NCBI GenBank assembly: GCA_013360195.1
Contig: JABWCQ010000010.1
Location: 1-64,000 of the forward strand
Direction of reading: 5' to 3'
DNA: 64,000 nt
DNA from: a bacterium
GTDB lineage: Bacteria; Electryoneota; RPQS01
Of this stretch, positions 1 through 33,628 are shown in pieces; the stretch's first letter is position 1, and the number at the start of each line of letters is the position of its first letter. Position numbers and translations under genes: made by a program. Below the pieces are notes generated by a model. The model saw only the letters and a list, made by a program, of their open reading frames with translations, searched no databases and was not told the DNA's origin.

Positions 1-1
1 G

Positions 2-181
2 TTTCGAGACAGCGAACAATCGAAGGAACTCGAAAAAGAGTTCTTCAACGGCACTGCTACCGTTAACCTGGCAGATTACTTAAGCGCACACAAACAACTA
101 AAAACACTCATATTTAACCTACGGAGAAATGCTTATGGAGATGCGGAATATGAACTACACAGAAGACCTTTCAGTTTCTAA
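2..181 (+). CDS. C-terminal end of an unrecognised protein (5' end outside window)
   Basis: An open frame runs in from the left edge and stops at a TAA ending at 181, giving 59 residues with a charged, helix-like composition (DSEQSKELEKEFF near the start, NLRRNAYGD later). It overlaps the start of the primase-helicase gene by about 47 bases, which is common in packed mobile-element operons. I do not recognise the family. The frame could be fortuitous because so little of it is visible. Confidence 0.35.
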   Translation, partial: FRDSEQSKELEKEFFNGTATVNLADYLSAHKQLKTLIFNLRRNAYGDAEYELHRRPFSF

Positions 182-2750
182 TATTAATGATAATAAATTT
201 GAACTTACACTCTCGGTTTCGACCGTTACAGTAGCTACTAAGGAAGAGGCTAAGAAAGTCGTTGACTTTCAGAAGCAGGCATTTATCGCCGAACCCGGCT
301 CCTTGGAGCTGGAACATCTCTTTACGACACAGTTATACTCCACAAATCTATGGTCCAGCGGTTGCAGCAACGCTGCATATATCGGCATGACTGGCGTCAC
401 GCTGGACTTCGATCATGGATATACGATTGACGAAGCGCAGCAAGCGTTTGCCGATTATAACTATATACTACATACAAGCAGAACACACCAGTATTCGGAA
501 GACAACAATCTAGGGGAAGACCGTTTTCGCGTGATTCTGCCCTTTGAACCAGGCGTCATGCAATTTACTTCAGCATCCGAAGCTGCAAAGGTCTATTACA
601 AGCTGATGACCTTGTATCCTAAGGCAGATCAAGCTTGCTCTAACCCAGGCCGCAAGTTCTTTCCTAGCACCCGTGAACTAAACACACCATTTCTTCTGGA
701 TGTGCATGTTTCCGGGAAGTACTTCAGCATGGATGTTAGTGATGTACCTGTAGTGAAGCCTTTTGTGCAAGTTAACTACATTCCGCCAACTGAACTAGAT
801 ACCCACGAAGAACTCTACCGCATGCTGAAGTTTGACAAGTTTATCCCATGGTGCCAAGGGGAGGCCAGCAATGGCCTTCCCGAACCACTGTGGCATGCGA
901 TGATTTCTAATCTTTGCCGTTTCGAAGGGGGGCGCGAACTGATTCATGAAATCAGTGCCAAGGATCCCGTCATTGGGCGTTACGACTTTGATGAAACTGA
1001 AGACAAAATCCAGCATGCGTTGGAATCAAGCGGTCCCATTGGATACGAAGAAATCGTGAAGCGCGGATGGTCGGGGGTTGCACCTGTTGCACCCCTGGCG
1101 CCAGCTGGCTTCGCTAAGATTGGTAGTATTCAGAACAGAAAGTCGCTGTTTGCATCTGACAAGAATCCGGATATCTACTTGAAACACGATGATTGGATTC
1201 TTGTAGATGACAAGGGTATTTTGTCAGCGATTATATTCGGTGACTTGAAACAGAAAGTCAAAGAAGAAGGGTGCACGGTTTCGGCGGTGTGCCCCTTCTG
1301 CGATACTGATGGCGCAAAGATTCGTACCAACACATTTCACTTTGCATACCTGCATTGCGAACAATGCAATCGCAGCTACTGGGAACATCCGGATTCCCCC
1401 GAACTGTTCAGCTACAACGGCGAACTGCTTCGTATTGAAATGAAGGGTAACAAGTTTATCAGCCACGAAAAGCTGAAACCGGTGAATTTCCGGAATGGCC
1501 TTGAATGGGACTACGCTTGCAAAGCTGTAATGAATGACCCAAAACGCCGTTTCATTGGAGATAGCTTCACAATCAATCGCATTGGCGATGCGAGTTTCGG
1601 TGAACTTGGTTATGAAATGCTGCCCGAAGAGAATTCTGTTGTCTTTGAATTCCCCGCGATTGGTGTCGATGTCCAAGATAATGCTTTCATTGACCGTTTT
1701 CTGGATCGCATGTTTCGTGATCGAGCTGACTTTGTAAAGAACTGGATGGCATTGTATGCCTATACAAACTATGTGTCTTTGCCGGTAATCGTATTGACGG
1801 GCCCGCGTAGCTGCGGCAAGAATACATTTGCCGATCTTGTGGGCGAGATATTCCCGTCGCTGAAGGCGACCTGGGATGGCGACAAGGAACAATTCAACGA
1901 TTTTGCAAAAGCGAAACTTGTGTTCGTGGATGAAAATCGCCATTCAGATAAGCCTGTCCAGTACGCCGAAATCAAACGTTTGACCGGCAGCCGAACGATT
2001 AAGATCAATGAAAAGCATATTCGCCAGTATTACGTAAGAAACAATGCTAAGTTTATCTTTGCTACAAATGATCCTCGTCCCATTGCCCTACATTGGCGTG
2101 AAGAACCCGAATCAGAAAAAACAAACAACTTTTTTATCTATTCTTGTCCGGCGGTATCGTCAGATGATATTGATGGAGAGTTGTTTGATAAGCTGAAAGC
2201 TCGATTGGGCCATTATGTCCGCACCGAACTTAAGAAGCGATTCGAAGCCTGGAAGCAATCTGGGAACGCAAATACACGCTATGCTTTGAAAACGCCAATA
2301 ACCGATCTGGCAAAACAGCTATTTGGTGCCAGTAAGAGTTTGATTGAATTGGAAGCAGAAGAATTGGCGCAATATTTAGTTTGTGGCTATCAACGAAATG
2401 ACGGAAGCCTACTTTATCCAAAAACATATTCATTTTCGCCTGTTATGGCGGCCGGAGGTTTGTACGTTCAGCAGCAAGATCTGCGCGAACTGGTTCAAAA
2501 GCTGAACTTCAAAGGCCATTCCAACTACAAATCCTATATTACAGTGCTTCAGGATCACGGTGTGCTGTCATACAAGAATGACAATCGCGTAAGTGGTCAG
2601 CGCCTTGGATACCAAATTCTTCGTAAACCTGAATACTATACGACCGCCAGCGGCTCGATAGCAGCAGAAGAAGGGGTTATTACCTCATCGGCCGGATTAT
2701 CGATTTGTCACACGACTTCGTCTTCTAATGGCCGAGTCGTTTTCGAATGA
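135..2750 (+). CDS. Primase-helicase (AEP-type primase plus SF3/D5-like helicase)
   Basis: This is a replication protein of the kind carried by phages, plasmids and integrative elements. The N-terminal third has archaeo-eukaryotic primase marks: an acidic DFD motif near residue 92, SRTH near 116 and an FRVILPFE strand near 133. A four-cysteine zinc knuckle (CPFC ... CEQC) lies near 387-412. The C-terminal half is a P-loop ATPase with Walker A GPRSCGKN near 555, Walker B KLVFVDEN near 595 and a sensor-1 FIFATND near 643, matching SF3/D5-type helicases. I chose the second ATG (135) because ACGGAG at 121-126 sits 8 bases before it; an ATG at 129 lies too close to that site. The array of phased ATGAC units directly downstream fits an origin. 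The family assignment is from motifs; its exact element type is inferred. Confidence 0.85.
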   Translation: MEMRNMNYTEDLSVSNINDNKFELTLSVSTVTVATKEEAKKVVDFQKQAFIAEPGSLELEHLFTTQLYSTNLWSSGCSNAAYIGMTGVTLDFDHGYTIDEAQQAFADYNYILHTSRTHQYSEDNNLGEDRFRVILPFEPGVMQFTSASEAAKVYYKLMTLYPKADQACSNPGRKFFPSTRELNTPFLLDVHVSGKYFSMDVSDVPVVKPFVQVNYIPPTELDTHEELYRMLKFDKFIPWCQGEASNGLPEPLWHAMISNLCRFEGGRELIHEISAKDPVIGRYDFDETEDKIQHALESSGPIGYEEIVKRGWSGVAPVAPLAPAGFAKIGSIQNRKSLFASDKNPDIYLKHDDWILVDDKGILSAIIFGDLKQKVKEEGCTVSAVCPFCDTDGAKIRTNTFHFAYLHCEQCNRSYWEHPDSPELFSYNGELLRIEMKGNKFISHEKLKPVNFRNGLEWDYACKAVMNDPKRRFIGDSFTINRIGDASFGELGYEMLPEENSVVFEFPAIGVDVQDNAFIDRFLDRMFRDRADFVKNWMALYAYTNYVSLPVIVLTGPRSCGKNTFADLVGEIFPSLKATWDGDKEQFNDFAKAKLVFVDENRHSDKPVQYAEIKRLTGSRTIKINEKHIRQYYVRNNAKFIFATNDPRPIALHWREEPESEKTNNFFIYSCPAVSSDDIDGELFDKLKARLGHYVRTELKKRFEAWKQSGNANTRYALKTPITDLAKQLFGASKSLIELEAEELAQYLVCGYQRNDGSLLYPKTYSFSPVMAAGGLYVQQQDLRELVQKLNFKGHSNYKSYITVLQDHGVLSYKNDNRVSGQRLGYQILRKPEYYTTASGSIAAEEGVITSSAGLSICHTTSSSNGRVVFE

Positions 2751-3240: not shown

Positions 3241-3315
3241 AAGCATTCTTTCAGAAAGACTCGTGCTTGCAGTCTAACCCGACAGTATCTCTTCCCGGCT
3301 AATACCCTAAGAATC

Positions 3316-3356
3316 ATTCCAAACCTGGTAGCGAAACCGAGTTTGGAATTTTTTTT
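3316..3356 (+). terminator. Intrinsic terminator
   Basis: A perfect 9-bp stem (ATTCCAAAC / GTTTGGAAT) is followed by a run of eight T on the plus strand. It would end transcription from the primase and small-protein side, facing the minus-strand cassette. Confidence 0.8.
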
Positions 3357-3548
3357 GTTGGAATATTTGGCTCTGGATACCTCCCAACGTAGTCTTCGAC
3401 CACCTTGTTGTTAGTTGGATTCGTGGTGATCCAATAATAGAAGAAGATCTGGGAACTCAGGTCTTCTTCAGCCTCGAAGGCTCCAGTTTCATACTTGGAG
3501 CTCTATTATTTTTTCAAGGAGCCTTTCTCTATGGTTCATCCGATCGAA
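3357..3548. other. Gap with a second hairpin and no supported gene
   Basis: Between the terminator and the DUF4282-like gene there is a plus-strand hairpin (about 3476-3512, GCTCCA / TTGGAGC) followed by a T-rich tract that may be a second terminator. The minus strand holds a protein-like open frame of about 60 codons ending at 3314, but a stop precedes it and there is no start codon, so it is not called as a gene. Confidence 0.4.
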
Positions 3549-11699: not shown

Positions 11700-14249
11700 T
11701 TATCTCAGTAACAACAGTTTGGAAACAGCTCTTTCGTCGGCTACTCCCAATATGGCAAAGTAAAGTCCCGTGGATAAGCTTGAAGCGTCAAACGCATGCC
11801 TGTGCGCACCTCCGGTCAAGCGTCCTAAATTCAGGCGCTCAACCTCTTGGCCGAGGATGTTGACGATACGAAGCTCAACATCGCCGGTCTTTGGTAAGGT
11901 GAAATTTAGAGTGGTATGAGAATTGAACGGATTGGGGTACGCGGACAACGCAAACTCTGATGGAAAAGGTCTGTTATCGGCCGCGCTGGTCGTGTCCTCT
12001 GTCGTGTCAATCGCGAAATGGATAACGAATGCGCTGCTGAGCGGATTGTCATTAGGCTGAAAGGCATCTGGCGTCACGGGAAAATCAACAGACGTCGTTG
12101 TCCCGACTAACCAAAGGCTGTCCGCATTTACTACCCAACCCGTTGCATAGGACTCAGAGTGTGAGCCCCCAACAAAGCTTCCGTAGAGCATAGCCGACAA
12201 GCCCCTGTCCAATTTCAGCACAAAAGCATCGCTCTCCTGGCCGAACCCATTGTTCAACACCCTATCATATGCGTCTCCGGTTGTCGGGAAGTCATTGCTG
12301 TTGGTTACGCCAGCTATCATGACATAGTCGTCTCCTACCCAATTCCCGTCGCCAAAAATGAATTCAGATTCATCCCTGCCAATGTACGTCCCCCGATACT
12401 CGCCTGTTTCCCAGTTCAAGCGCGCTACAAAGCCCTCCGGTGCATCGCCAGCTTCTTGCGGCCCAATCGAATCAAAAGCATCCGGCGAAGTCGGGAAATC
12501 AGTCGAAACTGTATATCCCGAAAGGTAGACTGTGGCATCTATTTCCAAGAGTGAAAACAAATGATCAAACCCACTCCCTCCAATGTAGCTGCAATACTCT
12601 AATGACGCCGGATTAAGGGTAAGTAGTAAAAAGAATGCGTCATTTGTTTGGAATTCTCCGCTGTCATTGAAACTTGGCTGAAAGGAATTTTCAGTAACTG
12701 GAATGTCTGGACTATTGGTTTCACCAATAAGCCAAATGTGTCCTTCTGGCGTCAAATACGAATCCCAAACAAGTTCTGGCGCACCTTCACCGCTGCCTCC
12801 GAAGTACGTTGAAAATACTATTTCATGTGTATTAGGGTCCCAGATCAATAGGGTGCTCTCGCCCCCTCCTCTAATCTCTGTGAATAGGGCGTCCTCCGAC
12901 AGCGGGAAGTCTGGAGAATTTGTTTCGCCCGCGGCATAGATCCTTCCGAGACTGTCAATTTCAATTCCGTAGTTGTAGTCGTATTGGCTTCCCCCCAAAT
13001 AAGAACAGTAGCTGAGGGTGGTTAAGTCCTCGCTCAATCTGAGTATGAAAGACTCGCCAAGTTGTATCACCGTATCCATTGCATCATGTGTCAGTGGCCA
13101 ATCTGGATATGCAAGACCACACATCCAAAGGCCGTTACGTCCCGAATCGAATACCATGTCCTGGACTCCGCCCTCGGTGTTTCTATTCTCCGATGTCTGG
13201 ATTTCACCAAACAATGTAGACGCCAAAAACTCTCCTTGAGCATTGAAGTGGCTGACGAATTCTCGTGCGCCCGGAAAAAGCCCTGTTTCATCATAAGCTC
13301 CCGGCGTTGTCGGAAATCCCGATAGCGCGTCGGTCCCTCCGGCCACATAGACCCCGCCGTCTGGTGCAGGACAAACGACATGGCACTCATCCACCCCCCC
13401 TCCTCCCAAGTATGTACCGTAAAGCAGCGGATCCACGATCAATTCTTTCGTCGAATCATATCCGTCAAGCTCAAACATCACGAGGTTGTCATTCACCACG
13501 CGATAGCGCGACTCGACTCGTTGTTGCGTCCGTGACATCTGCTGAAATGCAAACGGCGCTTGCTCTTTTATATCGCCCACTGAAGTCGGGAGAATGAGAT
13601 TGCCCTGTGCGTCTACTCTTAGCGGCGCATCGAGGCCGAGGTACTCCATTTGGATTTGCGATGGGTCGGCGCCGGGGTTGACGTGATAGACTGTTTCGAC
13701 ACCAAGCTTGTCGGCGCGGTATTCGACGTCAATGCCGGGCCAGACTTCGGGGACGATGATGTTTTGGTAGTGGCTTACGCGGCTGCGCCATTTTGTGCTG
13801 TCTCTTCCGAAGAAGTAGTTGGAGTAGTGGGGGAGCTTGTGCTTGCCCCGTGCCCCCAGACTCCCTTGCCGTTCCCCCGTAAACGGAGGAAGGCCAGAGT
13901 AGTGAATCTGCACGACATGCCCCCGCACCGTCACCGAATCGCGCTCCTCGTGCCGCTCCAAATGGGCCAGCGGGTCCCTCGAATTCCTCGCTTTGGGATA
14001 GCGCCTGAACTCCCGAAAGTCCACCGTCATCCCTTTTGGTGTGACATAATAGACTGTACTTCCAACTTCGCATTTGAACTGAAAATCGCCTTCCCATTGC
14101 CCTTCGTTGGCAATGAAGTAGGTCGAGTTTGGCGCGTTAACCGTTATGGGGGCAGCACTTATTTTGTTGTTTGACAGGATTCCCAAAAACAGAAAAGCGA
14201 ACCACCATCGCCCGTTTTTCGGGTAATACGATAGAGTTCGCTCGTACAT
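11700..14249 (-). CDS. Secreted SBBP β-propeller protein with T9SS sorting domain
   Basis: The product is about 849 residues. A signal peptide lies near residues 14-32 (WWFAFLFLGILSNNKISA). The first 250 residues form the domain that commonly precedes SBBP repeats (FIANEGQWEGDF, then VWPGIDVEYR). Several copies of the SBBP pattern follow, each with Y-x-S/T-Y-x-G-G-S then D-x-x-G-x-I-Y-x-x-G-x-T-x-S-x-x-F-P. The C-terminus (YPNPFNSHTTLNFTLP ... VNILGQEVERL) is a type IX sorting domain. The frame is open for 50 more codons upstream, but GGAGG five bases before the ATG at 14249 marks the likely start. It leads a two-gene transcript with the 2290-residue cargo. SBBP proteins act outside the cell; the binding partner is unknown. 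Confidence 0.87.
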   Translation of the reverse strand: MYERTLSYYPKNGRWWFAFLFLGILSNNKISAAPITVNAPNSTYFIANEGQWEGDFQFKCEVGSTVYYVTPKGMTVDFREFRRYPKARNSRDPLAHLERHEERDSVTVRGHVVQIHYSGLPPFTGERQGSLGARGKHKLPHYSNYFFGRDSTKWRSRVSHYQNIIVPEVWPGIDVEYRADKLGVETVYHVNPGADPSQIQMEYLGLDAPLRVDAQGNLILPTSVGDIKEQAPFAFQQMSRTQQRVESRYRVVNDNLVMFELDGYDSTKELIVDPLLYGTYLGGGGVDECHVVCPAPDGGVYVAGGTDALSGFPTTPGAYDETGLFPGAREFVSHFNAQGEFLASTLFGEIQTSENRNTEGGVQDMVFDSGRNGLWMCGLAYPDWPLTHDAMDTVIQLGESFILRLSEDLTTLSYCSYLGGSQYDYNYGIEIDSLGRIYAAGETNSPDFPLSEDALFTEIRGGGESTLLIWDPNTHEIVFSTYFGGSGEGAPELVWDSYLTPEGHIWLIGETNSPDIPVTENSFQPSFNDSGEFQTNDAFFLLLTLNPASLEYCSYIGGSGFDHLFSLLEIDATVYLSGYTVSTDFPTSPDAFDSIGPQEAGDAPEGFVARLNWETGEYRGTYIGRDESEFIFGDGNWVGDDYVMIAGVTNSNDFPTTGDAYDRVLNNGFGQESDAFVLKLDRGLSAMLYGSFVGGSHSESYATGWVVNADSLWLVGTTTSVDFPVTPDAFQPNDNPLSSAFVIHFAIDTTEDTTSAADNRPFPSEFALSAYPNPFNSHTTLNFTLPKTGDVELRIVNILGQEVERLNLGRLTGGAHRHAFDASSLSTGLYFAILGVADERAVSKLLLLR

Positions 14250-14530
14250 CGTGGCCTCCATGCAAAGTTGTTTCTCAAGCATCCCAAGACCTATATTCAT
14301 GGTACAACTGATTATCGGCACAGTCAAGCGATTTATGATTACGATTTCATTTGAGTTACTGCGAAGAAACCGATGCAGGCAAACAAACCATATCTGCATT
14401 TAAGTTCTGATAATTCAGCAACTTTGAATTAGTCAACCTGTCTATATTCAATTTACATTGTTCTTCCATGTTTATCAATAGAAACCGGGGAGGAGGCAAT
14501 AATAGACTACGATTCAGTCCAGAATAGGCT
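14250..14530. other. Intergenic region upstream of the cargo operon
   Basis: No gene is supported here. The minus strand contains a TTGACT at about 14427-14432 that could be a -35 element for the cargo operon, but no good -10 lies at the right distance. Confidence 0.3.
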
Positions 14531-14561: not shown

Positions 14562-14813
14562 TCAGCCAACGGAGTTGTCAAGCAGTTTCTTCAGCTTCTT
14601 TTCGCCTTTGATAGTCTTGTTGGTGTCGTTGTTTGTCACTTCAAGAATGGAGAACACCTCTTGAATTGGATTGCACCCTTGATACTCAGCGCTGGTATAT
14701 GGCACCCTCCCAGATGTGACCATTCGAATTGCGGCTTCAAGAGTAGGCGCATCAACAACATACTGCACAACATGATCCCAACGTTCGTGCGTCGTGATTT
14801 GGAAATTGGGCAT
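14562..14813 (-). CDS. Small unrecognised protein closing the Ubl operon (83 aa)
   Basis: The 83-residue product reads as a small mixed α/β protein (FQITTHERWDHVVQYVVDAP ... EVFSILEV) with a lysine-rich tail (IKGEKKLKKLL). I do not recognise a family; the pattern β-strand, helix TLEAAIRMV, then a second β pair resembles small ferredoxin-like accessory proteins. It begins 4 bases after the E1-like gene stop without its own clear ribosome-binding site, so it is probably translationally coupled. Its fixed place before the operon terminator suggests a role in the conjugation system, for example as target, adaptor or inhibitor. That role is inference. Confidence 0.7.
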   Translation of the reverse strand: MPNFQITTHERWDHVVQYVVDAPTLEAAIRMVTSGRVPYTSAEYQGCNPIQEVFSILEVTNNDTNKTIKGEKKLKKLLDNSVG

Positions 14814-14817
14814 ACGG

Positions 14818-15471
14818 CTATAACATCATTGTAAATGTTGCCAGATCAAGTACAATCCGCGCTGGTATCATCTCATCGCAAAGATACCGCTTCACCAAGG
14901 AGCAGATTACACTCCCAGCCATCAAAGGCGTATAGCATATTGCCCGTGCTGTGCATGGTTCTTGAAGAGCCTGATCATCTGGTACAAGCGAACGCGTATA
15001 CTCTACGCGTTCAGTTTTGATCTGTGGTTTTACAGCATGCACGATTAAGGTCTCCAGCCCCATTCGGGCATCAATGTACAATTGCACCTGTGGTTGATCA
15101 CGAATAGACTTCCAGATAGTCTCGCGTGACTTCATTGAATCCACAGCGGAAATCACGATGCCAGATAGCTGCCGACCGTCGAAGTGCATTCCAATCGCAT
15201 TCGGAAGCACTCTGGTCTGGTTCTCTACTAGGATTGAGAACGCATCTGCTTTCAGAAGCCCCACATCAGACATCCCATAAGCCTGGTTGCTGACATTGTG
15301 AATATCCACAACATCGGCATCGAAACAGGTCACTTTGCATACGCCCATCTTGGCAAGATACAACCCCGTGACGCTCCCAATGGAACCCAGACCGATCAGT
15401 GTAACCTGCAAGTTCGCAAGTTTCTCGGCATCGACAACATCTTTTTGGCGTAAGAATCGCATATCGTTCAT
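14818..15471 (-). CDS. E1-like Ubl-activating enzyme (ThiF/MoeB family)
   Basis: The 217-residue protein matches the Rossmann-type adenylating domain of ThiF, MoeB and ubiquitin E1. Visible marks are GLGSIGS at 27-33 for ATP, D51-A-D-V after the second strand, HNVSNQ at 58-63 in the place of the usual N-x-x-R-Q element, and an aspartate at 111. EPCTARAICYTP at 171-182 places a cysteine (C173) where family members carry the thiolate that accepts the activated Ubl. It lacks the paired CxxC zinc motifs of housekeeping MoeB and ThiF, and is shorter than they are. AGGAG five bases before the ATG supports the start. It lies 8 bases after the JAMM gene. It should adenylate the C-terminal glycine of the Ubl encoded at 17361-17570. 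Confidence 0.9.
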   Translation of the reverse strand: MNDMRFLRQKDVVDAEKLANLQVTLIGLGSIGSVTGLYLAKMGVCKVTCFDADVVDIHNVSNQAYGMSDVGLLKADAFSILVENQTRVLPNAIGMHFDGRQLSGIVISAVDSMKSRETIWKSIRDQPQVQLYIDARMGLETLIVHAVKPQIKTERVEYTRSLVPDDQALQEPCTARAICYTPLMAGSVICSLVKRYLCDEMIPARIVLDLATFTMML

Positions 15472-15479
15472 GTGGTCTC

Positions 15480-16196
15480 CTAGAATGGTTCAAAATTGTC
15501 ACGTTCAATTCCTAGCCAGTTCAGTTCATCGTCGAGTTCATCGGCAGTTAAAGCACCACGAGCACTTGCTTCGTCAAGTTCATCGATAATCATATCGCGC
15601 TTCATCAGTTGATCATCACGCGTTCGCTTCAGAAACGTTGTCTCGCGTACTTTGGCTTTGAATTCATCGAAGCACGCTTCTGCAAGTCCGTCTACGGTGG
15701 GGAACTTCGTTTCCCACTGAATTTCAGGAATGTACATGTGACTCGGGTGAAACTGATCTAGACGCATCTGGGTATCGCGACGCTTGTTCACGACCAGGGA
15801 TAGTAGCCATTCACCATTGGCAAGTCCACTGATACATGATTCATCCTGACCAGACCAGAAGACGCTCATCGTCCCGTGGGAGTGTGCCCAACAGCGAAGT
15901 TTGTGTGAGTCGATTCCTTTCGCTTCAAGCTCGGATATCAATCGAGCAACATCGACGACATCCATATCGGTTTCGTCGGAACTGCAATTCTGCTTTACCA
16001 GAAAGAAGTCTGTGACAATCAATGCTGTTGTGCGACCAGTATCGGTGTTCACAACTTCATCTACGAGCCCGAGACAACTAACTTCACCTTTGGCAAAGTC
16101 CGTCCACAGCCATAACTTCTGCATCGCAGTTGCTTCAACATGAATCTTCACGCCTGCATCAACCGGCTGTCGCTGTGTCCTCTGCAAGTTCTGCAT
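15480..16196 (-). CDS. JAMM/MPN metallopeptidase (Ubl-processing or deconjugating)
   Basis: The 238-residue protein carries the full JAMM zinc motif: H105-S-H107, seven residues, S115, two residues, D118 (AHSHGTMSVFWSGQD), with an upstream glutamate E38 in KGEVSCLG as the catalytic acid. This is the signature of Rpn11-type and prokaryotic JAB isopeptidases. In this setting it probably trims the Ubl precursor, removes Ubl from targets, or both. The frame is open far upstream inside the E2-like gene, but AGGAGG six bases before the ATG at 16196 fixes the start. That overlaps the E2-like gene by 38 bases. The C-terminal 50 residues are acidic and helical. Confidence 0.9.
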   Translation of the reverse strand: MQNLQRTQRQPVDAGVKIHVEATAMQKLWLWTDFAKGEVSCLGLVDEVVNTDTGRTTALIVTDFFLVKQNCSSDETDMDVVDVARLISELEAKGIDSHKLRCWAHSHGTMSVFWSGQDESCISGLANGEWLLSLVVNKRRDTQMRLDQFHPSHMYIPEIQWETKFPTVDGLAEACFDEFKAKVRETTFLKRTRDDQLMKRDMIIDELDEASARGALTADELDDELNWLGIERDNFEPF

Positions 16197-17262
16197 CGGC
16201 ATCCTCCTCTTCTTCGTCTTCATCTTTTGGGTGATTTGGGCATTCATCGGCATCGTGATCATCGTATTGCTGACAGTGCTCGCACCACCAGCAAGATTCG
16301 CAGTCTGAAACATCATGGCCGTAATCGTCACACCACGAACAATACGGTTCATCGTCATCGCTTTCATCGACCCAGTCCGGATCCCATTTCTCGATCTTTT
16401 GAAACGGATCACTACTGTTGTAACTATGCAGAAACTGATGTACCAACTGAAGCAATCCATGCAGGTCGAGTTCACCAGCAAGACGTGACACCAAATGTGA
16501 GATGTTGCCCCAGCATACATTGTTAGGATCATCTGTGACATGCGGATGAATGTAGCCGTTCATTTCAGTGCCGCCTGAAATCAGCACTTTGCCCTTGTCC
16601 AAGTCCACTTCAACTACGTAAGGTTCGAAGTTGTAACTACCACCGTCGTGTTCAAGTGTGATCGGATACGTTTCGGCGAGCACAGACTTGTCGACGACGT
16701 TGATATGCGAGTAGCACGATGGCACAAGTTTCATCATCTCCACAAATGTCCTTGTCGCCTTTGCCTTGATGAAGTCAGGTGCTCTGCTGAACATATTCAG
16801 AATCTCGCGGTCACCTTCGATCTTCCGCGACAATGTCATCACTTGCATACAAAGACGCTCGAGTTCATATCGGTCGTCGCGAAGCGTCCGAGCCAGTTCC
16901 TGTTTGCGTTCAACGGCTACAATCTGCGTCGTATCAATCAACGCCATTCGTTGTGCACTGCGAAATGCACGGCACATACGCGGCAGATGCGCGTCGAGAA
17001 TATTCGAAGTGACATCTAAGCGTGGTGCGCCGTACAATACCAGCCATGTAGGTGACACTTTGCCAAGGAGTACATCTTCCATGACGATGGCATCACCAAC
17101 GAGGTCTTTGCAGAATGTCGAGTTCTTGTCGGCATTGATATGAACTGCAATCCCGACCTCGTGCCAAGCGTGAACATCAAGATCCTGCTTGACCAGCGTT
17201 ATCGGCGTATGCCACTTCTGGGCATGGAAGTCACACAGCGTTCGAATCTGTGGTTCAATCAT
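16159..17262 (-). CDS. E2-like Ubl-conjugating protein with Cys-rich acidic tail
   Basis: In this 367-residue protein, residues 185-290 follow the order of an E2 (UBC) fold. There is a β-meander, then YIHPHV (239-242, the HPN position), C250 in NNVCWGN at the catalytic cysteine position, then LLQLVHQFLHSYNSSDPF, which resembles the E2 helix and its N-x-x-D-P end. Residues 308-341 hold seven cysteines (CSWC, CESC, CEHC and C341) and several histidines, likely one or two zinc sites. The tail is almost wholly acidic. The N-terminal 180 residues are unrecognised and largely helical. GGAGG seven bases before the ATG supports the start. The E2 call rests on motif order and on the flanking Ubl, E1 and JAMM genes, and structure prediction would settle it. 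Confidence 0.75.
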   Translation of the reverse strand: MIEPQIRTLCDFHAQKWHTPITLVKQDLDVHAWHEVGIAVHINADKNSTFCKDLVGDAIVMEDVLLGKVSPTWLVLYGAPRLDVTSNILDAHLPRMCRAFRSAQRMALIDTTQIVAVERKQELARTLRDDRYELERLCMQVMTLSRKIEGDREILNMFSRAPDFIKAKATRTFVEMMKLVPSCYSHINVVDKSVLAETYPITLEHDGGSYNFEPYVVEVDLDKGKVLISGGTEMNGYIHPHVTDDPNNVCWGNISHLVSRLAGELDLHGLLQLVHQFLHSYNSSDPFQKIEKWDPDWVDESDDDEPYCSWCDDYGHDVSDCESCWWCEHCQQYDDHDADECPNHPKDEDEEEEDADAELAEDTATAG

Positions 17263-17281
17263 AAGCGTTCCTCCGGAGGAA

Positions 17282-17318
17282 AGAGAGGGCCATGACCACT
17301 TGGATCACAGCCCTCTCT
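17282..17318 (-). terminator. Hairpin between the Ubl and E2-like genes
   Basis: A 9-bp stem AGAGAGGGC / GCCCTCTCT lies in the gap, followed on the minus strand by TTTCC. It may stop part of the transcription, leaving more Ubl message than enzyme message. It sits immediately before the E2 ribosome-binding site. Confidence 0.5.
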
Positions 17319-17360
17319 GAAACTTGAGACTACGTAGGACAGGTAGTCTGAAGCTTGCTC

Positions 17361-17570
17361 CTATGCGCCCCCTTTTACTTGTGGCACGAGGGTCAAAACC
17401 GCGTTGTCGACAAGCACATCTGTGTCGAAACACGGACTGCCGTTCAAGTGTCGGGTGTAGCTGGAATCTTTCGGGAACCCGGCTTCCGCGATGGCCTGTT
17501 CGACGGTCGTGCCGTCACTGACGTTGATTTCTTTTGCCGAACGGCCGAGGCAGAGGACTTTGACTTTCAT
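17361..17570 (-). CDS. Ubiquitin-like β-grasp protein ending in GGA
   Basis: The 69-residue product fits the ThiS/MoaD β-grasp pattern: MKVKVLCLGRSAKEINV as the first hairpin, TTVEQAIAEAGF as the helix, HLNGSPC as the third strand and VLTLVPQVKGGA at the end. The last residues are G67-G68-A69. Sulfur carriers and mature ubiquitin end in GG, so one alanine must be removed before activation, and the JAMM peptidase in the same operon is the obvious candidate. AGGAG six bases before the ATG marks the start. It is the first gene of the operon and is separated from the E2-like gene by a hairpin. A role in ordinary thiamine or molybdopterin synthesis is unlikely given these neighbours. Confidence 0.9.
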   Translation of the reverse strand: MKVKVLCLGRSAKEINVSDGTTVEQAIAEAGFPKDSSYTRHLNGSPCFDTDVLVDNAVLTLVPQVKGGA

Positions 17571-17598
17571 GGGAAACTCCTGAGCAGGTTGAAATGAA

Positions 17599-17625
17599 AA
17601 GAGCCCTGCACAATGCAGAGCTCTT
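17599..17625 (-). terminator. Hairpin in the leader of the Ubl gene
   Basis: Read on the minus strand, a 12-bp stem (AAGAGCUCUGCA / UGCAGGGCUCUU, one U-G pair) with a three-base loop ends in TTTTC, 29 bases before the Ubl start. It could be a leader attenuator or the end of an earlier transcript. Confidence 0.5.
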
Positions 17626-17636
17626 GCTTCTGTAAA

Positions 17637-17664
17637 TTCTTATGCCAGAATCAAGGCATAAGAA
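17637..17664. promoter_or_regulatory. Inverted repeat upstream of the Ubl operon; motif copy 3
   Basis: TTCTTATGCC (17637-17646) and GGCATAAGAA (17655-17664) form a perfect 10-bp inverted repeat with an 8-base spacer. One arm plus spacer is the TTCTGGCATAAGA motif found upstream of two other minus-strand island genes. The symmetry suggests an operator for a dimeric regulator of the Ubl operon. Confidence 0.45.
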
Positions 17665-18146: not shown

Positions 18147-19517
18147 ATGCTCAACGCTATGTCATCACTACACTCAACATTGAACCGACTAGCCTTTTTG
18201 GCCCGCGCGGTCCCCTTGTCGATTCTAATTGTGCTTTGTGCAATTAGCTCATCTGCACAAGGGTTTGAGAGCGACAGCTTGCTTGCGAGTTATGTCGCTG
18301 AATCTTGGAAGTCCCATCCCAACATCGAACGCATGCAGGCAATGATTGCTGTGGAAAGAAGTCGTGCTACCATGAACAACTCGTGGATGAATCCGGAATT
18401 GCGCGCCGGACTAATGAATGTTCCGGAGAGTTTTGATGTGCATTCGGATCCGATGACTATGTTTCAGATTGGTGCCATGCAGCAGATTCCTTTCCCCGGG
18501 AAACTAAATGCGGCAAGACAAGCAGGTGAAGCTCGGGTCCGTGCCGCAACCTCCATTCTTGATCAAGAAAGATTTCGAATGGCTGCGATGGTGGCGATGG
18601 CTTATTACGATTTAGCGGCAGCTCTTGAAACACGCCAAATGCTTGAACAAGGACTTGTATTAACAAAACAGGCTGTTGACGCTGCAGCATCGTTGCTTTC
18701 CACAGGGAAGGGATCACGGACAGAAGTGTTGCGAGCAGGTCTTGAACAAGAGGAGTGGGATCTTAAATTGCTAGCGAACGCATCAGAGATTGACCAAAAA
18801 CGCGCAGAGCTGGCCTACTCCATTGGAAGGACTAATGACAATGCACTGGTTAACCCTATTCTACCGAATGCTCTGCCACCTTTGATAGACCTTGACGCAG
18901 GACTTGCGTTGGTTGAAAATGCATCAACTCCGCAAGTCAAAATCGCGCAGGCGCAGTTACGAGCTACCGAATTTGAACTTCGAAGAGCCAAGCTTGATTA
19001 TTGGCCGGACGTCAAGTTGGGGCTTGCTTATGGTATAAGAGGAGCATTGAAGGGTGCGGGGACAGATCCCCATACAGGCGAACCGATTTCTCAGTCACTC
19101 AAACAAGATAACATGGTCACTATAGAAGTGTCCGCTTCTATTCCGCTGTTATCCCGAGGTAATCAGCAAGCAAAGATAAGCGAAGCTCGCGCTATGAGCC
19201 GCAGTCAACAAAGCGAACAAAAAGAGTCGATGCTCAACCAGCAGCAGGAATTACGAATCGTTCACTCGGAATTTGCGAAAACGATTAATCAATACGAGGT
19301 AAATCGCCAAGTTGTCGAACAATCAGAGGCTGCCTGGCGCTCAGCGCTTGTGGACTATCAGGCGGGAGTGTATCCCTACATGGGACTTTCAGACGCACGT
19401 ACGGTCTTAGTCATGGCACAAATAGAATCAGTCATGTATCGCGCGAAGGCATGGGCCACGTACCGTCAATGGCAGAGCTTGCTTGGAAATTACTCTGTTG
19501 ACGCAACGGAACAATAA
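18147..19517 (+). CDS. cusC: Outer-membrane efflux factor, CusC/TolC family
   Basis: The 456-residue protein begins with a signal peptide (ARAVPLSILIVLCAISSSAQ). It then has two long helical repeats with the TolC-family mix of coiled coil and short strands (ELRAGLMNVPES; QIPFPGKLNAARQAG; ASIPLLSRGNQQAKISEAR). It should form the outer-membrane channel of a tripartite metal exporter with the next two genes. An ATG at 18159 is an alternative start and would leave a longer leader behind the predicted σ54 start site near 18141. No clear ribosome-binding site is seen for either. The stop is 9 bases before cusB. The product could be called a generic TolC protein; the metal role comes from its partners. 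Confidence 0.9.
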   Translation: MLNAMSSLHSTLNRLAFLARAVPLSILIVLCAISSSAQGFESDSLLASYVAESWKSHPNIERMQAMIAVERSRATMNNSWMNPELRAGLMNVPESFDVHSDPMTMFQIGAMQQIPFPGKLNAARQAGEARVRAATSILDQERFRMAAMVAMAYYDLAAALETRQMLEQGLVLTKQAVDAAASLLSTGKGSRTEVLRAGLEQEEWDLKLLANASEIDQKRAELAYSIGRTNDNALVNPILPNALPPLIDLDAGLALVENASTPQVKIAQAQLRATEFELRRAKLDYWPDVKLGLAYGIRGALKGAGTDPHTGEPISQSLKQDNMVTIEVSASIPLLSRGNQQAKISEARAMSRSQQSEQKESMLNQQQELRIVHSEFAKTINQYEVNRQVVEQSEAAWRSALVDYQAGVYPYMGLSDARTVLVMAQIESVMYRAKAWATYRQWQSLLGNYSVDATEQ

Positions 19518-19526
19518 GAAGGCGAC

Positions 19527-21083
19527 ATGAGAACAACAACTGCAAAATGGCTTCCTTGGTTAACTCTGTTTATCATCGCGAGTATGGGACTTACTGGTTG
19601 GCTATTGTGGGGCAACCGCGCTCAAACCGGGACAGAGACAACACGATCATCGACTGCCGAAATTTACACTTGTCCCATGGATCCCGAGGTTCAGCAGGAT
19701 CAGCCCGGGAAGTGTCCGATATGCGGGATGAATCTCGTTCTTAAGAAAGCTGATTCGGCTCAACCAAAGAGTGATAAGTCGGAGAGCGCTGAGAACGAAA
19801 CTAAATCTGAAAGCACAGACAAATATCAGTGTCCGATGCACCCTGCCATCGTACAGGATCACCCGGGTGATTGCCCAATCTGCGGAATGAAACTTGTTAG
19901 GATGAAGGGATCGGCATCTGACCAATCGAAGCCAAGTTCGTCATCGTCACACAAAGTGGCATTCTATCGTTCACCAATGAATCCAAATCAGACTTCGCCT
20001 GTCCCACGCAAAGATGAGATGGGCATGGATTATTTGCCTGTATACGAGGAGGATTCAAGCGGCGACTCAGATGTTAATGGCCGAGCGGCGGTAGAAATCG
20101 ATCCTAAACGACAGCAGTTAATCGGACTGCGAATCGCTAAGGCCGAGAAAGCAGGCATTTCTGGAGGCTGGCGAACTGTCGGGCGCGTCGAAATTGACCC
20201 AACAAGAGTCAGCCGCATCAACGTCAAAGTTGCAGGATTCGTTGAGCACGTGTTTGTAGATTTCGTCGGTCGTGCCGTGAAGCGGGGAGAACCATTGTTC
20301 ACACTTTATAGTCCTGATTTGCTTGCTGCGCAACAAGAGTATCTCCTTTCATTAGAGAATCGCGAGAACAACACGAATGAAGGTCAGGCTTCGACGTACG
20401 ACGCGGTTGTGCTTGCAGTTCGAAACAAACTCAAGAATTGGGACGTACCCGAGTCCGCCATCGTTCGCATGGAGGAGACTCGGGAAACAACTAAGGCGCT
20501 GACTTTTACCTCTCCAGTTAGTGGAGTTGTAACTTTGAAAGATGTAGTCGAGGGAGCAACGCTTGAGTCTGGTGCTGTTCCGTACGAAGTAACTGATTTG
20601 AACGTAGTTTGGGTAATGGCAGATGCCTACCAGCCTGACCTCGCACACGTACATGTGGGAACACGAGCATCCATGTCATTTGAAGCACTACCTGATCGTG
20701 TGATTATTGGCACAGTGGCATTTATTGATCCGATTCTTGACGTGCAAAGCAGAACAGCCAAAGTAAGGCTTGAAGTAGAAAATGAAAATCGTGACTTAAA
20801 ACCCGGCATGTTTGGTGAAGTGCTTTTCAAAGGGGAAAGTCGCGAGTCATTGACTATTCCGTCCGATGCGTTGATTCCGACTGGAAGTGGATTCTATGTC
20901 TTTGTCGCATTAGGCGAAGGTCAGTTTGAGCCGCGCGCTGTAATGCTTGGAGATAAATCTGGAGAGAGAGTTGAGATTATAGAGGGTCTAAGCGAAGGAG
21001 AATCAGTTGTAACGCGTGCTAATTTCCTGGTGGACTCGGAATCATCTTTGCGTGCAGCGCTGTCAGCGGTGGAAGGCAATTAA
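19527..21083 (+). CDS. cusB: RND efflux adaptor with metal-binding N-terminus, CusB family
   Basis: This 518-residue periplasmic adaptor links CusA to CusC. After a membrane anchor (residues 9-29) come two heavy-metal-binding modules of the CPM-x-P ... G-x-CPICGM type, near 49-72 and 99-122. A third, cysteine-free copy (FYRSPMNPN ... [10 protein letters not shown]) lies near 147-175. Barrel-sandwich, hairpin and β-barrel parts follow ([51 protein letters not shown]). The paired CxxC and Met motifs suggest Cu(I) or Ag(I). The gene starts 9 bases after cusC and ends 2 bases before cusA, so the three are one transcript. Confidence 0.92.
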
Positions 21084-21085
21084 CG

Positions 21086-24000
21086 ATGCAGGAAAACTTA
21101 ACAGTTCTCCAACGCATCATCCGCTTCTCTGCTGAGAATCGCTGGCTTGTCATTGCGGCAACGCTTGTGGCAATCGTGATTGCTGCGTGGACCATGCAGC
21201 ACATCCCATTGGACGCGTTGCCCGACTTGTCTGATACACAGGTCATCGTTTACTCACGTTGGGACCGCAGTCCGGATATCATTGAGGATCAGGTCACATA
21301 TCCGATCGTCAGTTCGCTGCTCGGCGCGCCAAAAGTAAAGGCCATCCGAGGTTTTTCGGATTTCGGATACAGCTTCATCTATGTCATTTTCGAAGATGGA
21401 ACAGACATTTACTGGGCGCGAACACGCGTGCTGGAGTACCTTTCCAAGATTACTGCGCAGCTGCCAACCGGTGTAAAAACGGAGTTAGGGCCGGATGCAA
21501 CAAGCCTTGGGTGGGTCTTTCAATATGCACTCGTTGATCGCTCGGGCAAGAACACAAGCGACGAGTTACGCAGCTATCAAGACTGGTATCTAAGGTATGC
21601 CATTTCGTCTGTGCCCGGCGTTGCAGAAGTTGCCGCAGTTGGCGGTCAGGTCAGGCAGTATCAGATTACCGTTGATCCCAATGCCTTGGCCGCTTACAAT
21701 CTACCGTTAGAGGCAGTGATCCAGGCAGTTCGTAAGGGAAATAATGACGTCGGTGGAAGGCTTGTCGAAATCTCTGGCCGTGAATATATGGTTCGTGGCC
21801 GTGGGTATGTGGAGTCCATCGCGGATCTGGAACAGCTCGTTCTCCTGTCTCAGGGAGGGACGCCGGTTACAGTCAAAGATGTCGCAACAGTTGCACTTGG
21901 TCCGGAGTTGCGGCGGGGTATTACTGACTATAATGGTGAAGGCGACGTTGTCGGAGGAATTGTCGTCATGCGGCAGGGCGAAAATGCGTTAAATGTCATT
22001 GAACGAATCAAAGCAAGGATTGAAGAGCTAAGGCCTTCTTTGCCCGAAGGGGTCGAAATCGTCACGACGTATGACCGATCTGAATTAATCGGGCGAGCAA
22101 TTGATACAGTCGAAGGCAAATTGATAGAAGAACTCATCATTGTTTCTATTATCATCCTGATCTTTCTATGGCATGTTCCATCTGCTGCCATACCGATTGT
22201 CACGATTCCAATAAGCGTGGTACTGGCGTTCATACCCATGTACATGATGGGTTTGACCGCAAACATCATGTCCCTTGCCGGAATCGCGATTTCGGTTGGT
22301 GTTTTGGTGGACGGAGCGATTGTCGAAGTCGAGAACGCATACAACAAGATTTACCATTGGCAAGCCGGAGGTATGAAGGGAGACTTCCACAAGGTTCGAC
22401 TAGATGCATTGATGGAAGTTGGGCCGACAGTATTTTTCTCGCTGCTGGTAATTGCGGTCGCGTTCATTCCGGTGTTTACGTTAGTAGATCAGGAAGGCCG
22501 GTTGTTCAAGCCACTCGCCTTTTCAAAGAACATTGCGATGGCGATTGCTGCGGTGCTTGCCATCACACTTGATCCGGCGCTGCGAATGATGTTTGCACGG
22601 ATCGACCCATTCAAGTTTCGACCCAAATTTCTGGCCTGGACTGCGACTAAGTTTGCGGTTGGGACTTACTACTCAGAGGAAAAGCACCCCATAAGCAGGT
22701 TCCTACATAGAATTTATGAGCCGCCCTGTCGCTTCGTCTTGCGCCATCCTAAGGCAACCATATTCGCAAGTCTTCTGTTAGTCGCGTTGACCATCCCAGT
22801 TTATCTGCAGCTTGGTCATGAGTTCATGCCGCCCTTGCGTGAAGGGAGCTTGCTCTACATGCCTTCAGCAGTTCAACCCGGAATGTCTGTTGCCGAAGCG
22901 CAGAAGGCATTGCAGGTGCAAGACAAGCTTCTGATGACATTCCCCGAAGTAGATCGCGTCTTTGGCAAAGCCGGTCGTGCTGAGACGTCCACCGATCCGG
23001 CTCCATTCACGATGATGGAAACAACCATCCTGTTGAAGCCCGAATCTGAATGGCGGGAGAAACCTCGTTGGTATTCAAGTTGGTCGCCTGAATGGTTGAA
23101 GGCAATACTTAGAACTGCATGGCGCGACAGGATTACAGAGGCCGAACTTGTCAGCGAGATGGACGAGCGGCTTCAGTTGCCCGGGATTAGCAATGCATGG
23201 ACAATGCCGATCAAGGCTCGTCTTGACATGTTATCGACCGGAATACGAACACCTGTTGGCATAAAGATATCTGGAAGCGATCTTGCTGTTGTGCAGCAAA
23301 TCGCTGTAGAGATGGAATCGGCGTTACAGGGAGTTCCGGATACTCGAAGTGTGTATGCTGAACGTGTTGCAGGTGGCTACTTCCTTGACTTTGATTTGCG
23401 CCGTGACCAGCTTGCCCGATACGGGTTAACTGTTGATGACGCAAATATGATGGTGATGACGGCTGTAGGCGGAGACAATCAGACGACGACCGTCGAAGGT
23501 CGGGCGCGATACGGCGTCAATGTGCGTTATGCCCGAATCTTTCGCGACAATCTTGATGCACTCCAGCGTGTGCTCATTTCCTTGCCGAATAATCAGGGAC
23601 AGATTCCTATGTCTGAAATCGCAGACATTAAGCTAGTTGAGGGACCGGCAATGATCCGTGATGAGAACGGATTACTTGCAGGTTACGTCTATGTAGATTT
23701 CGATCCTTCAAAGGTTGATGTAGGTGGATATGTGGAGCATGCCAAGCAAGCTGTATCAGCTTCAGTAAAGATCCCAACGGGCTATTCAGTGGTTTGGAGC
23801 GGGCAGTACGAGAACATGTTGCGCGTCAAAGAACGGCTCAAGCTCATAATTCCACTAACACTTATTTTGATCTTTGGGCTCTTGTACATGAACACGAAGT
23901 CGAGCTTCAAGTCGTTCATGGTCATGCTGGCAGTTCCCTTTTCTGCCATCGGTGCCGTTTGGTTAATGTATTTCCTCGATTACAATGTCTCTATCGCGGC

Positions 24001-24412
24001 ATGGGTTGGCATGATCGCTTTGCTTGGGCTTGATGCTGAGACGGGCGTATTTATGTTGCTATTTCTCGACCTTTCGCACAATGAAGCAAGGGTCCGAGGA
24101 CAATTGCGAACTACGGGGGACTTAGTTGAAGCTATCGTACATGGAGCCGTCAAGCGGGTTCGTCCGAAAGCCATGACCGTGTGCGCCGCTTTCATTGGAC
24201 TACTTCCCATCATGTGGTCCACGGGTGCAGGCTCAGACCTGATGAAACGCGTAGCTGCACCAATGGTGGGAGGATTGGTTACCTCCTTTGCCTTAGAACT
24301 TTTGGTCTATCCGGCAATCTACTATCTGTGGAAACGCAAAACTGTTGTCCCCGGGCCGGAATCATCTGCCGACAACGGCGAGAATACGGCGGCAACACTT
24401 GTTCCTTGCTGA
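21086..24412 (+). CDS. cusA: Heavy-metal RND efflux pump, CusA family
   Basis: At 1108 residues this is a full-length HME-RND transporter. It shows the N-terminal helix, DALPDLSDTQVIV typical of metal pumps, the loop SVPGVAEVAAVGG, and the transmembrane motif VGVLVDGAIVEVENA with the charged residues that relay protons. The second half repeats the architecture (WVGMIALLGLDAETGVFML). It should drive proton-coupled export of Cu(I) or Ag(I) through CusC. Start and stop are tightly placed after cusB. Metal choice is inferred from neighbours with Met/His-rich and YHS proteins and a copper-type ATPase. Confidence 0.93.
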   Translation: MQENLTVLQRIIRFSAENRWLVIAATLVAIVIAAWTMQHIPLDALPDLSDTQVIVYSRWDRSPDIIEDQVTYPIVSSLLGAPKVKAIRGFSDFGYSFIYVIFEDGTDIYWARTRVLEYLSKITAQLPTGVKTELGPDATSLGWVFQYALVDRSGKNTSDELRSYQDWYLRYAISSVPGVAEVAAVGGQVRQYQITVDPNALAAYNLPLEAVIQAVRKGNNDVGGRLVEISGREYMVRGRGYVESIADLEQLVLLSQGGTPVTVKDVATVALGPELRRGITDYNGEGDVVGGIVVMRQGENALNVIERIKARIEELRPSLPEGVEIVTTYDRSELIGRAIDTVEGKLIEELIIVSIIILIFLWHVPSAAIPIVTIPISVVLAFIPMYMMGLTANIMSLAGIAISVGVLVDGAIVEVENAYNKIYHWQAGGMKGDFHKVRLDALMEVGPTVFFSLLVIAVAFIPVFTLVDQEGRLFKPLAFSKNIAMAIAAVLAITLDPALRMMFARIDPFKFRPKFLAWTATKFAVGTYYSEEKHPISRFLHRIYEPPCRFVLRHPKATIFASLLLVALTIPVYLQLGHEFMPPLREGSLLYMPSAVQPGMSVAEAQKALQVQDKLLMTFPEVDRVFGKAGRAETSTDPAPFTMMETTILLKPESEWREKPRWYSSWSPEWLKAILRTAWRDRITEAELVSEMDERLQLPGISNAWTMPIKARLDMLSTGIRTPVGIKISGSDLAVVQQIAVEMESALQGVPDTRSVYAERVAGGYFLDFDLRRDQLARYGLTVDDANMMVMTAVGGDNQTTTVEGRARYGVNVRYARIFRDNLDALQRVLISLPNNQGQIPMSEIADIKLVEGPAMIRDENGLLAGYVYVDFDPSKVDVGGYVEHAKQAVSASVKIPTGYSVVWSGQYENMLRVKERLKLIIPLTLILIFGLLYMNTKSSFKSFMVMLAVPFSAIGAVWLMYFLDYNVSIAAWVGMIALLGLDAETGVFMLLFLDLSHNEARVRGQLRTTGDLVEAIVHGAVKRVRPKAMTVCAAFIGLLPIMWSTGAGSDLMKRVAAPMVGGLVTSFALELLVYPAIYYLWKRKTVVPGPESSADNGENTAATLVPC

Positions 24413-24476
24413 GAATTGCCTACTAACGACTAATTCACTTCGTCACGCAACGACACATACTTCAAAGGATTTCCTG

Positions 24477-25328
24477 ATGTCAAAGCTATTTTACATTCTT
24501 CTGTTCCCGGTTATTCTTGCAGTGGCTATTCTAACGGGCTGCAAAAGCGATAGCGGTGACGATACTCAGACCATAGACGATCAAGTGCTTGTGACAGTTA
24601 CCCCGGCAGATAATGCTGTAAATGCTCCGACCCAGTCCACCATTACGGTGACGTTTGATCATGCGATGATGGTCATGGACCATATGGACGAGATGTTTAT
24701 GCTGCACCAAGGATGGGGAATTGGCACGGCACCGGTTGCAGTAACATACTCATGGAACAACGACAACACCATCCTGACCATGCAGCCCACTGCAGCACTG
24801 CAAGAGAACATGACCTACACCGTTCACCTTATGGGTATGATGATGGGTATGGACGGGATGATGTATCACATGATGATGGACACGATGGGAATGGGTGGCA
24901 TGGGGAATGGCATGATGATGGGTGGAATGGGTGATGATGAAATTCGGACGGCGTTTTCAACCGGTCCGGCAATCGTCCACCAAATCACGCTTGACATTTC
25001 GCAAGACGTAGTCTTTGTCGCAGACGGAGGATCAGGTGATATTGCTGTAATTAACCCCGAGACAAACACGTTGATTGGAATTCAGCCCATTGATTCGGTT
25101 GGCTATTTACACCATATCTATCTTTCGGCAGATAACACGAAGCTGATTGTATCAGACCCCAACGAAGATTTGAGCACAGGACATGAAGAGAGTGGAGGAA
25201 ATGGCGGTCACGGAGGCCACGGTGGGGGAAATGAAACCATGATGTCCAGGATAATTCTGCTGGATTCACGAACGTTGCTTGAAACAAACAGGATTACCTT
25301 TGAGGGTATGACTCACAATGCACGATGA
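24477..25328 (+). CDS. Met/His-rich lipoprotein, N-terminal part of a frameshifted propeller protein
   Basis: AAGGA seven bases before the ATG supports this start. The product has a lipoprotein signal (FPVILAVAILTGC). A Big_5-like Ig domain follows (VTVTPADNAVNAPTQSTITV) and contains a striking run of methionines (GMGGMGNGMMMGGMG), a feature of periplasmic copper binders. The first blades of a YVTN/YncE-type β-propeller come next (DVVFVADGGSGDIAVINPE), with a GHGGHGGG patch. The frame ends at a TGA (25326-25328), while the next frame continues the propeller without loss. A single missing base near 25325 would explain this. It is probably a surface or periplasmic copper-binding lipoprotein. 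Confidence 0.82.
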   Translation: MSKLFYILLFPVILAVAILTGCKSDSGDDTQTIDDQVLVTVTPADNAVNAPTQSTITVTFDHAMMVMDHMDEMFMLHQGWGIGTAPVAVTYSWNNDNTILTMQPTAALQENMTYTVHLMGMMMGMDGMMYHMMMDTMGMGGMGNGMMMGGMGDDEIRTAFSTGPAIVHQITLDISQDVVFVADGGSGDIAVINPETNTLIGIQPIDSVGYLHHIYLSADNTKLIVSDPNEDLSTGHEESGGNGGHGGHGGGNETMMSRIILLDSRTLLETNRITFEGMTHNAR

Positions 25329-25972: not shown

Positions 25973-26036
25973 TTGTGCGAAACTGGATATTCTATCACTG
26001 GTCTTTGGTTTCAGAAACACAGAAAGAGAAACGACA

Positions 26037-29445: not shown

Positions 29446-29446
29446 T

Positions 29447-33271: not shown

Positions 33272-33628
<357 letters not shown>

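What the first reader, a model, noticed from the sequence alone, without database searches (positions are those of the whole stretch)
14562..17570. Compact operon with a full ubiquitin-like conjugation set in an FCB-group mobile island
Seen: a Ubl ending GGA, an E2-like protein with HPHV and a cysteine at the expected place, a JAMM peptidase with the full H-x-H-x7-S-x-x-D motif, and an E1-like adenylating enzyme, all in one tight minus-strand operon with overlapping or coupled genes. Known: comparative genomics has described predicted bacterial operons combining Ubl, E1, E2 and JAB genes, and Bil systems act against phage. Inference: this cassette is a cargo system for protein or lipid modification, possibly defence. 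The large E2 with a Cys-rich acidic tail, the minimal E1 and the extra 83-residue protein do not match the gene layout I know for Bil, CBASS or PRTRC sets.
Basis: partly seen in the sequence, partly recalled or inferred. Interest (0 to 1): 0.8.

Follow-up and report, generated by a model that had tools for sequence, protein, structure and literature searches.

The report
Ubiquitin-like tagging operon on mobile elements
A four-gene bacterial version of the ubiquitin protein-tagging machinery, related to the plasmid-borne PRTRC cassettes, travels as a constant part of tRNA-integrating mobile elements in a little-known bacterial phylum and may serve the element itself or protect the cell.

Summary
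On the minus strand lie a Ubl ending VKGG-A, an E2-like protein, a JAMM peptidase, a single-domain E1 and an optional 83-aa protein. The core order Ubl-E2-JAMM-E1 is kept wherever all four genes can be seen (15 loci, 10 genomes, 3 copies in the window's own genome), under strong purifying selection. Active-site residues are invariant except in the E2 His-Pro-His motif, and every complete Ubl carries 1-4 extra residues after Gly-Gly, as a JAMM-trimmed precursor should.

The operon belongs to a family of tRNA-integrating elements. In the sister genome it sits in a 16-kb element between 57-bp tRNA-Asp repeats. Typically a tyrosine integrase lies at one end and a primase-helicase at the other, with secreted T9SS proteins between.

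The closest known system is PRTRC (operon type 6d of Iyer et al. 2006). Gene order matches (C-F-B-A-ThiF minus F); E1 and JAMM are homologous; the E2 match is weak; the Ubl is different (SAMP2/ThiS-like); PRTRC proteins E and F are not seen. It is not Bil or CBASS. The E2 also carries two CCHC zinc knuckles.

AlphaFold/Foldseek could not confirm the UBC fold (low confidence). Biological role is inferred: element maintenance or defence.

The parts
17361..17570 (-). Ubl, 69 aa, precursor ending VKGG-A
   Evidence: profile match to SAMP2/ThiS-like beta-grasp proteins, E about 1e-7; VKGG invariant with a variable 1-4 residue tail in 14 of 14
16159..17262 (-). E2-like protein: N-terminal domain (1-80), long helix (82-160), UBC-like region (about 160-300; HPHV then Cys250), two CCHC zinc knuckles (308-341)
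   Evidence: Cys250 invariant; hhalign to PRTRC_B and eukaryotic E2 aligns on the catalytic Cys; structure prediction inconclusive
15480..16196 (-). JAMM/JAB peptidase, 238 aa
   Evidence: E38, H105, H107, S115, D118 invariant; Prok-JAB in 14 of 14 members, best E 5e-4
14818..15471 (-). E1-like adenylating enzyme, 217 aa, single domain, invariant C173-T174
   Evidence: Pfam ThiF 5.5e-13; PRTRC ThiF profile E=1e-16 over 193 columns
14562..14813 (-). optional 83-aa protein of unknown fold
   Evidence: relatives after E1 in 3 other loci; no family match
17638..17647 (-). promoter-like motif TGGCATAAGA upstream of the Ubl
   Evidence: kept, with a few mismatches, upstream of Ubl in 14 loci; function inferred
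17597..17626 (-). hairpin followed by T-run between the motif and the Ubl start (possible leader attenuator)
   Evidence: read from sequence; similar hairpins in several relatives
129..2750 (+). primase-helicase (873 aa) at the far end of the element
   Evidence: DUF5906 E=1.5e-16; PHROG DNA primase E=3e-11
3278..3371 (-). repeat shared with the right ends of the two other copies in this genome
   Evidence: blastn 93% to C6 and C26
4802..11674 (-). T9SS-sorted secreted protein, 2290 aa (variable cargo)
   Evidence: Por_Secre_tail hit at C10:4814-5056
11700..14399 (-). T9SS-sorted secreted protein, 899 aa, DUF7948 and SBBP (variable cargo)
   Evidence: Pfam

Best explanation
A dedicated ubiquitin-like conjugation and deconjugation cassette of the PRTRC (type 6d) lineage, carried as a constant module of tRNA-integrating, primase-encoding mobile elements. 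Proposed steps: (1) JAMM cuts the short tail off the Ubl to expose Gly-Gly; (2) E1 adenylates the Ubl and holds it on Cys173; (3) it passes to Cys250 of the E2; (4) the E2, guided by its own zinc knuckles in place of a separate E3, attaches it to a target; (5) JAMM reverses it. Shown here: the genes, their conserved order and active-site residues, the precursor-type Ubl tail, and the link to the elements. Inferred: every reaction step, the target, and the role, which I place first in the element's own replication, partition or excision control and second in defence.
For: 15 loci with fixed gene order; invariant JAMM, E1 Cys-Thr and E2 Cys; VKGG plus 1-4 residues in 14 of 14 Ubls; purifying selection. 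PRTRC gene order and homology: E1 score 111.6 (shuffled max 24.6), JAMM 41.4 (max 23.3), E2 28.7 (max 22.9 of 60). Mobility: 57-bp att repeats in G028, 82-bp in G000 C6, 32-bp in G027 C2; integrase on the divergent side, usually beside a tRNA, in 10 of 13 assessable loci; the matching tRNA-Asp site in the window's genome holds a different island. Primase-helicase in 9 of 10 assessable loci; all six DUF5906 primases on a contig with an operon lie 8-25 kb from it. The most divergent copy (G001) has a ParB gene 0.7 kb after E1.
Against: No UBC fold could be shown by structure prediction. The E2-PRTRC_B match is weak and the match to eukaryotic E2s is within the shuffled range. The Ubl has no detectable relation to PRTRC_C. 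The E1 lacks the usual NRQ arginine (sequence reads SNQ). One E2 copy (G029) has an in-frame stop and one (G027 C5) has lost the first His of HPH. The G028 element has no primase. The window copy itself has no adjacent integrase. No target is known.
Confidence: 0.66

Rival explanations
1. The cassette is anti-phage defence cargo, working like Bil or CBASS Cap2/Cap3: it tags a phage protein or a hidden effector after infection. This shares the chemistry above and differs in purpose.
Against: No nuclease, nucleotidyl cyclase or other killing effector in the operon; PADLOC gives only generic E1 matches; the operon stays constant between elements whose cargo is swapped.
Confidence: 0.3
2. A Ubl system without a true E2: the 367-aa protein is a substrate or adaptor with a chance HPHV-Cys motif, and E1 alone attaches the Ubl, as with archaeal SAMPs.
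For: The Ubl is SAMP2-like; low-confidence models with no UBC match.
Against: Cys250 and flanks are invariant, the PRTRC_B match aligns on that Cys and beats 60 of 60 shuffles, and the gene sits where PRTRC has its E2.
Confidence: 0.13
3. A sulphur-carrier (ThiS/MoaD-type) system delivering sulphur to a metabolite or tRNA.
For: Ubl matches ThiS models; E1 matches ThiF.
Against: A trimmed tail, JAMM and E2-like partners; no rhodanese or thiamine/molybdopterin genes seen in the neighbourhoods read; Iyer et al. note that JAB does not occur with thiamine/Moco operons.
Confidence: 0.05
4. The system modifies or controls the large T9SS-secreted proteins encoded just after it, acting as a processing module for the cargo.
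For: One or two same-strand T9SS proteins follow E1 in about 7 of 11 loci with enough sequence.
Against: At least 150 such genes in this genome make some adjacency expected; the secreted proteins differ between copies and are absent in G027 C2 and G001.
Confidence: 0.06

Closest known systems
PRTRC cassette (ParB-related, ThiF-related cassette; most like Iyer et al. 2006 operon type 6d)
   Same: Order Ubl-E2-JAMM-E1; single-domain E1 homologous over 193 columns with a Cys-Ser/Thr motif; JAMM with HSHG-x3-F[FW]S-x2-D; E2 with [VI]C[WL]G around the Cys; on mobile DNA; one copy beside parB
   Different: No PRTRC E or F seen, usually no ParB; Ubl unrelated in sequence and ending GG plus a tail instead of mostly a terminal single G; E2 367 aa against about 240-275, with an extra N-terminal domain, zinc knuckles and HPH; on chromosomal tRNA-integrating elements instead of plasmids
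Bil (BilABCD)
   Same: Four genes Ubl, E2, JAMM, E1 with precursor trimming
   Different: BilA has two Ubl domains, BilB a CEHH motif, BilD a two-domain E1 with a Cys domain (PMC11354881); here one Ubl, HPH plus Cys, and a 217-aa E1
Type II CBASS Cap2/Cap3
   Same: E1, E2 and JAMM activities
   Different: Cap2 is an E2-E1 fusion and the conjugated protein is the cyclase itself; no CD-NTase here
Archaeal SAMP2/UbaA
   Same: Closest Ubl by sequence and a MoeB/ThiF-type E1
   Different: No E2 needed (PMC11354881); no such operon
P4/PICI-like integrative satellites
   Same: tRNA site, tyrosine integrase and HTH excisionase-like gene at one end, primase-helicase at the other (likeness from general knowledge)
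   Different: No packaging or capsid genes recognised; carries the Ubl operon and T9SS proteins

Membership tests
PRTRC | ThiF/E1 homologous to PRTRC ThiF | tested here: met
   hhalign E=1e-16, 193 columns; score 111.6 against shuffled max 24.6; below the NCBIfam cut-off, 33 of 144.75 bits
PRTRC | JAMM homologous to PRTRC_A | tested here: met
   hhalign E=2e-5; 41.4 against shuffled max 23.3; below the NCBIfam cut-off
PRTRC | E2 homologous to PRTRC_B | tested here: inconclusive
   score 28.7 against max 22.9 of 60 shuffles, probability only 24%, aligned on the Cys
PRTRC | Ubl homologous to PRTRC_C | tested here: not met
   score 12.9 against shuffled max 15.0
PRTRC | Order C-(F)-B-A-ThiF | tested here: met
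PRTRC | Companion ParB, E and F genes | tested here: not met
   not recognised in the neighbourhoods read; only G001 has ParB 0.7 kb away; not every neighbour was scanned with HMMs
Bil | Two-domain E1 with Cys domain, tandem-Ubl BilA, CEHH E2 | tested here: not met
   E1 217 aa, Ubl 69 aa, no CEHH; features from PMC11354881
CBASS type II | CD-NTase plus E1-E2 fusion | tested here: not met
   separate E1 and E2; no cyclase or effector in the operon
ThiS/MoaD sulphur carriers | Linked thiamine or molybdopterin genes, no JAMM | tested here: not met
   JAMM present; no such genes seen in the neighbourhoods read
Ubiquitin-like conjugation systems | Covalent Ubl adducts | not testable with these tools
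   needs biochemistry
Ubiquitin-like conjugation systems | UBC fold in the E2 | tested here: inconclusive
   AlphaFold pLDDT 69.4 and 63.5; no Foldseek hit at E<=0.001

The most novel reading that the evidence does not exclude
Integrative elements that use a private ubiquitin-like conjugation system, with a self-targeting zinc-knuckle E2 in place of an E3, to control their own replication, partition or excision: a ubiquitin-like pathway serving a mobile element instead of the host.
Probability: 0.3. Interest if true: 0.85.

Novelty: new variant of a known kind. Interest (0 to 1): 0.6.

Why it matters
PRTRC-type systems are common on plasmids (339 plasmid records match one PRTRC_B), yet I found no paper in the library searched that tests what they do. 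Here a reduced relative is tied to small elements with identifiable ends, integrase and primase, down to 16 kb in size, so the question whether such ubiquitin-like systems serve mobile-element maintenance or defence becomes testable. The E2 fused to two zinc knuckles would be a simple natural case of an E2 that carries its own target- or nucleic-acid-binding domain. It also adds an FCB phylum to the groups with apparently complete E1-E2-Ubl-JAMM sets.

Tried and rejected
Searches for relatives in phage and plasmid records and IMG/VR gave nothing. AlphaFold of the whole E2 and of the UBC crop gave low-confidence models with no PDB match. A sigma-54 promoter for the divergent AAA activator was considered and not supported: the TGGCATAAGA motif lacks a -12 GC and occurs elsewhere. 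An empty-site comparison for the tRNA-Lys fragment in the window was inconclusive, since its neighbour maps 58 kb away in the sister genome. Work on other bacterial Ubl pathways in subscription journals or preprints could not be read.

Full report
Observation. The JAMM gene starts at 16196 (the start kept in relatives), overlapping the E2 gene by 38 nt. Pfam finds ThiF in the E1 (5.5e-13) and sub-threshold ThiS in the Ubl and Prok-JAB in the JAMM; the JAMM model matches all 14 aligned members at E up to 1.

Conservation. The E2 has three copies in the window's own genome G000 and 15 in ten genomes of the phylum; Ubl-E2-JAMM-E1 order is fixed wherever all four are on the contig. The host phylum is Electryoneota: two of the genomes carry contigs of the same length as RPQS01000120 and MWJR01000211 (Calditrichaeota bacterium AABM5.125.24) (PMC10439189). 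Invariant: JAMM E38, H105, H107, S115, D118; E1 GxGxxG, D51, K74, D111, C173-T174; E2 Cys250 with W-G after it. The HPH before Cys250 is kept in most copies but is SPH in G027 C5. All 14 complete Ubls read VKGG plus 1-4 variable residues, as expected of a precursor trimmed by JAMM. dN/dS against the nearest copies is 0.05-0.16.

The E2-like protein. Residues 150-305 align with PRTRC_B above 60 of 60 column shuffles (28.7 against 22.9) and on the catalytic Cys; against eukaryotic E2s the register is right (HPHV on HPNI, Cys on Cys, YNSSDPF on PNPDDPL) but the score is not above shuffles. AlphaFold models are poor (pLDDT 69.4 whole, 63.5 crop) with no Foldseek match. The UBC assignment is therefore likely but not shown. 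The tail holds two CCHC zinc knuckles.

Mobile context. In G028 the operon lies in a 16-kb element flanked by a 57-bp repeat of the tRNA-Asp 3' end (C5:157666 and 173656) with tyrosine integrase, HTH protein, AAA activator, operon and two T9SS proteins. G000 C6 has 82-bp tRNA-Ser-type repeats 45 kb apart and G027 C2 has 32-bp repeats 29.5 kb apart. Ten of 13 assessable loci have an integrase on the divergent side, usually beside a tRNA. The tRNA-Asp site of G000 holds a different 39.6-kb island between copies of the same repeat, without the operon, so occupancy varies within the genus. At the other end, 9 of 10 assessable loci have a primase-helicase (DUF5906 or AEP-TOTE type); all six DUF5906 primases found on a contig that also holds an operon lie 8-25 kb from it, chance product about 2e-8 for the five within 25 kb. 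In the window the primase is at 129-2750 and the integrase end is missing: an efflux operon follows at 18147. A tRNA-Lys 3' fragment at 33578-33713 matches an intact tRNA-Lys on contig C15 with its own integrase, suggesting that the first 33.6 kb of the window is island DNA; this is an inference across contigs.

Comparison. PRTRC loci from plasmids read ParB-E-C-F-B-A-ThiF. Ours is C-B-A-ThiF in order. E1 (E=1e-16) and JAMM (2e-5) are homologous, E2 is borderline, the Ubl is not related and is instead SAMP2/ThiS-like. The most divergent copy (G001) sits between a DUF5683 gene and a ParB gene, which may be the chromosomal parB locus; it is suggestive because PRTRC is defined by ParB. Iyer et al. 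2006 (PMC1779556) predicted such cassettes as mobile modification systems. Bil and CBASS fail on E1, Ubl and E2 architecture.

Verdict. A new variant of the PRTRC/6d kind of Ubl-E2-JAMM-E1 operon, tied to integrative elements. Chemistry and role are predicted, not shown.

Noticed in passing
window 1-191 and L017 15518-15708: Two different primases (DUF5906 type and AEP-TOTE type) share their upstream region and first ~20 codons at 93% DNA identity; the first T9SS genes after E1 likewise share their 5' ends (MTRI.S.FNLLKRVGFA) but not their bodies. This looks like cassette swapping behind a constant leader.
   Followed up: partly
window 18147-33713: Metal-resistance island (outer-membrane efflux, CusB-like, AcrB-like, P-type ATPase with YHS) ending in a truncated tRNA-Lys 3' fragment; the intact tRNA-Lys and another integrase are on contig C15.
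   Followed up: partly
G000 contig C15 67711-107418 (L100-L102): A different 39.6-kb island in the same tRNA-Asp site that holds the Ubl element in the sister genome.
   Followed up: partly
L026 9295-10422: The E2 of genome G029 has one in-frame TAG, so this copy may be decaying or misassembled.
   Followed up: no
L018 6968-8767, L016 3505-5697, L023 11317-13341: The gene divergent from the Ubl is exchanged between copies: sigma-54-type AAA activator in some, a 674-730 aa protein without family in others.
   Followed up: no
L018 5227-6066, L016 1613-2296: Conserved ~230-280 aa protein next to the integrase; the L018 member has no family match in Pfam, PHROGs or NCBIfam.
   Followed up: partly
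window 17638-17647 and other places: Motif TGGCATAAGA after terminators and before genes, possibly a general promoter element of this phylum.
   Followed up: no
whole genome G000: At least 150 Por_Secre_tail (T9SS) matches in a 3.2-Mb genome.
   Followed up: no
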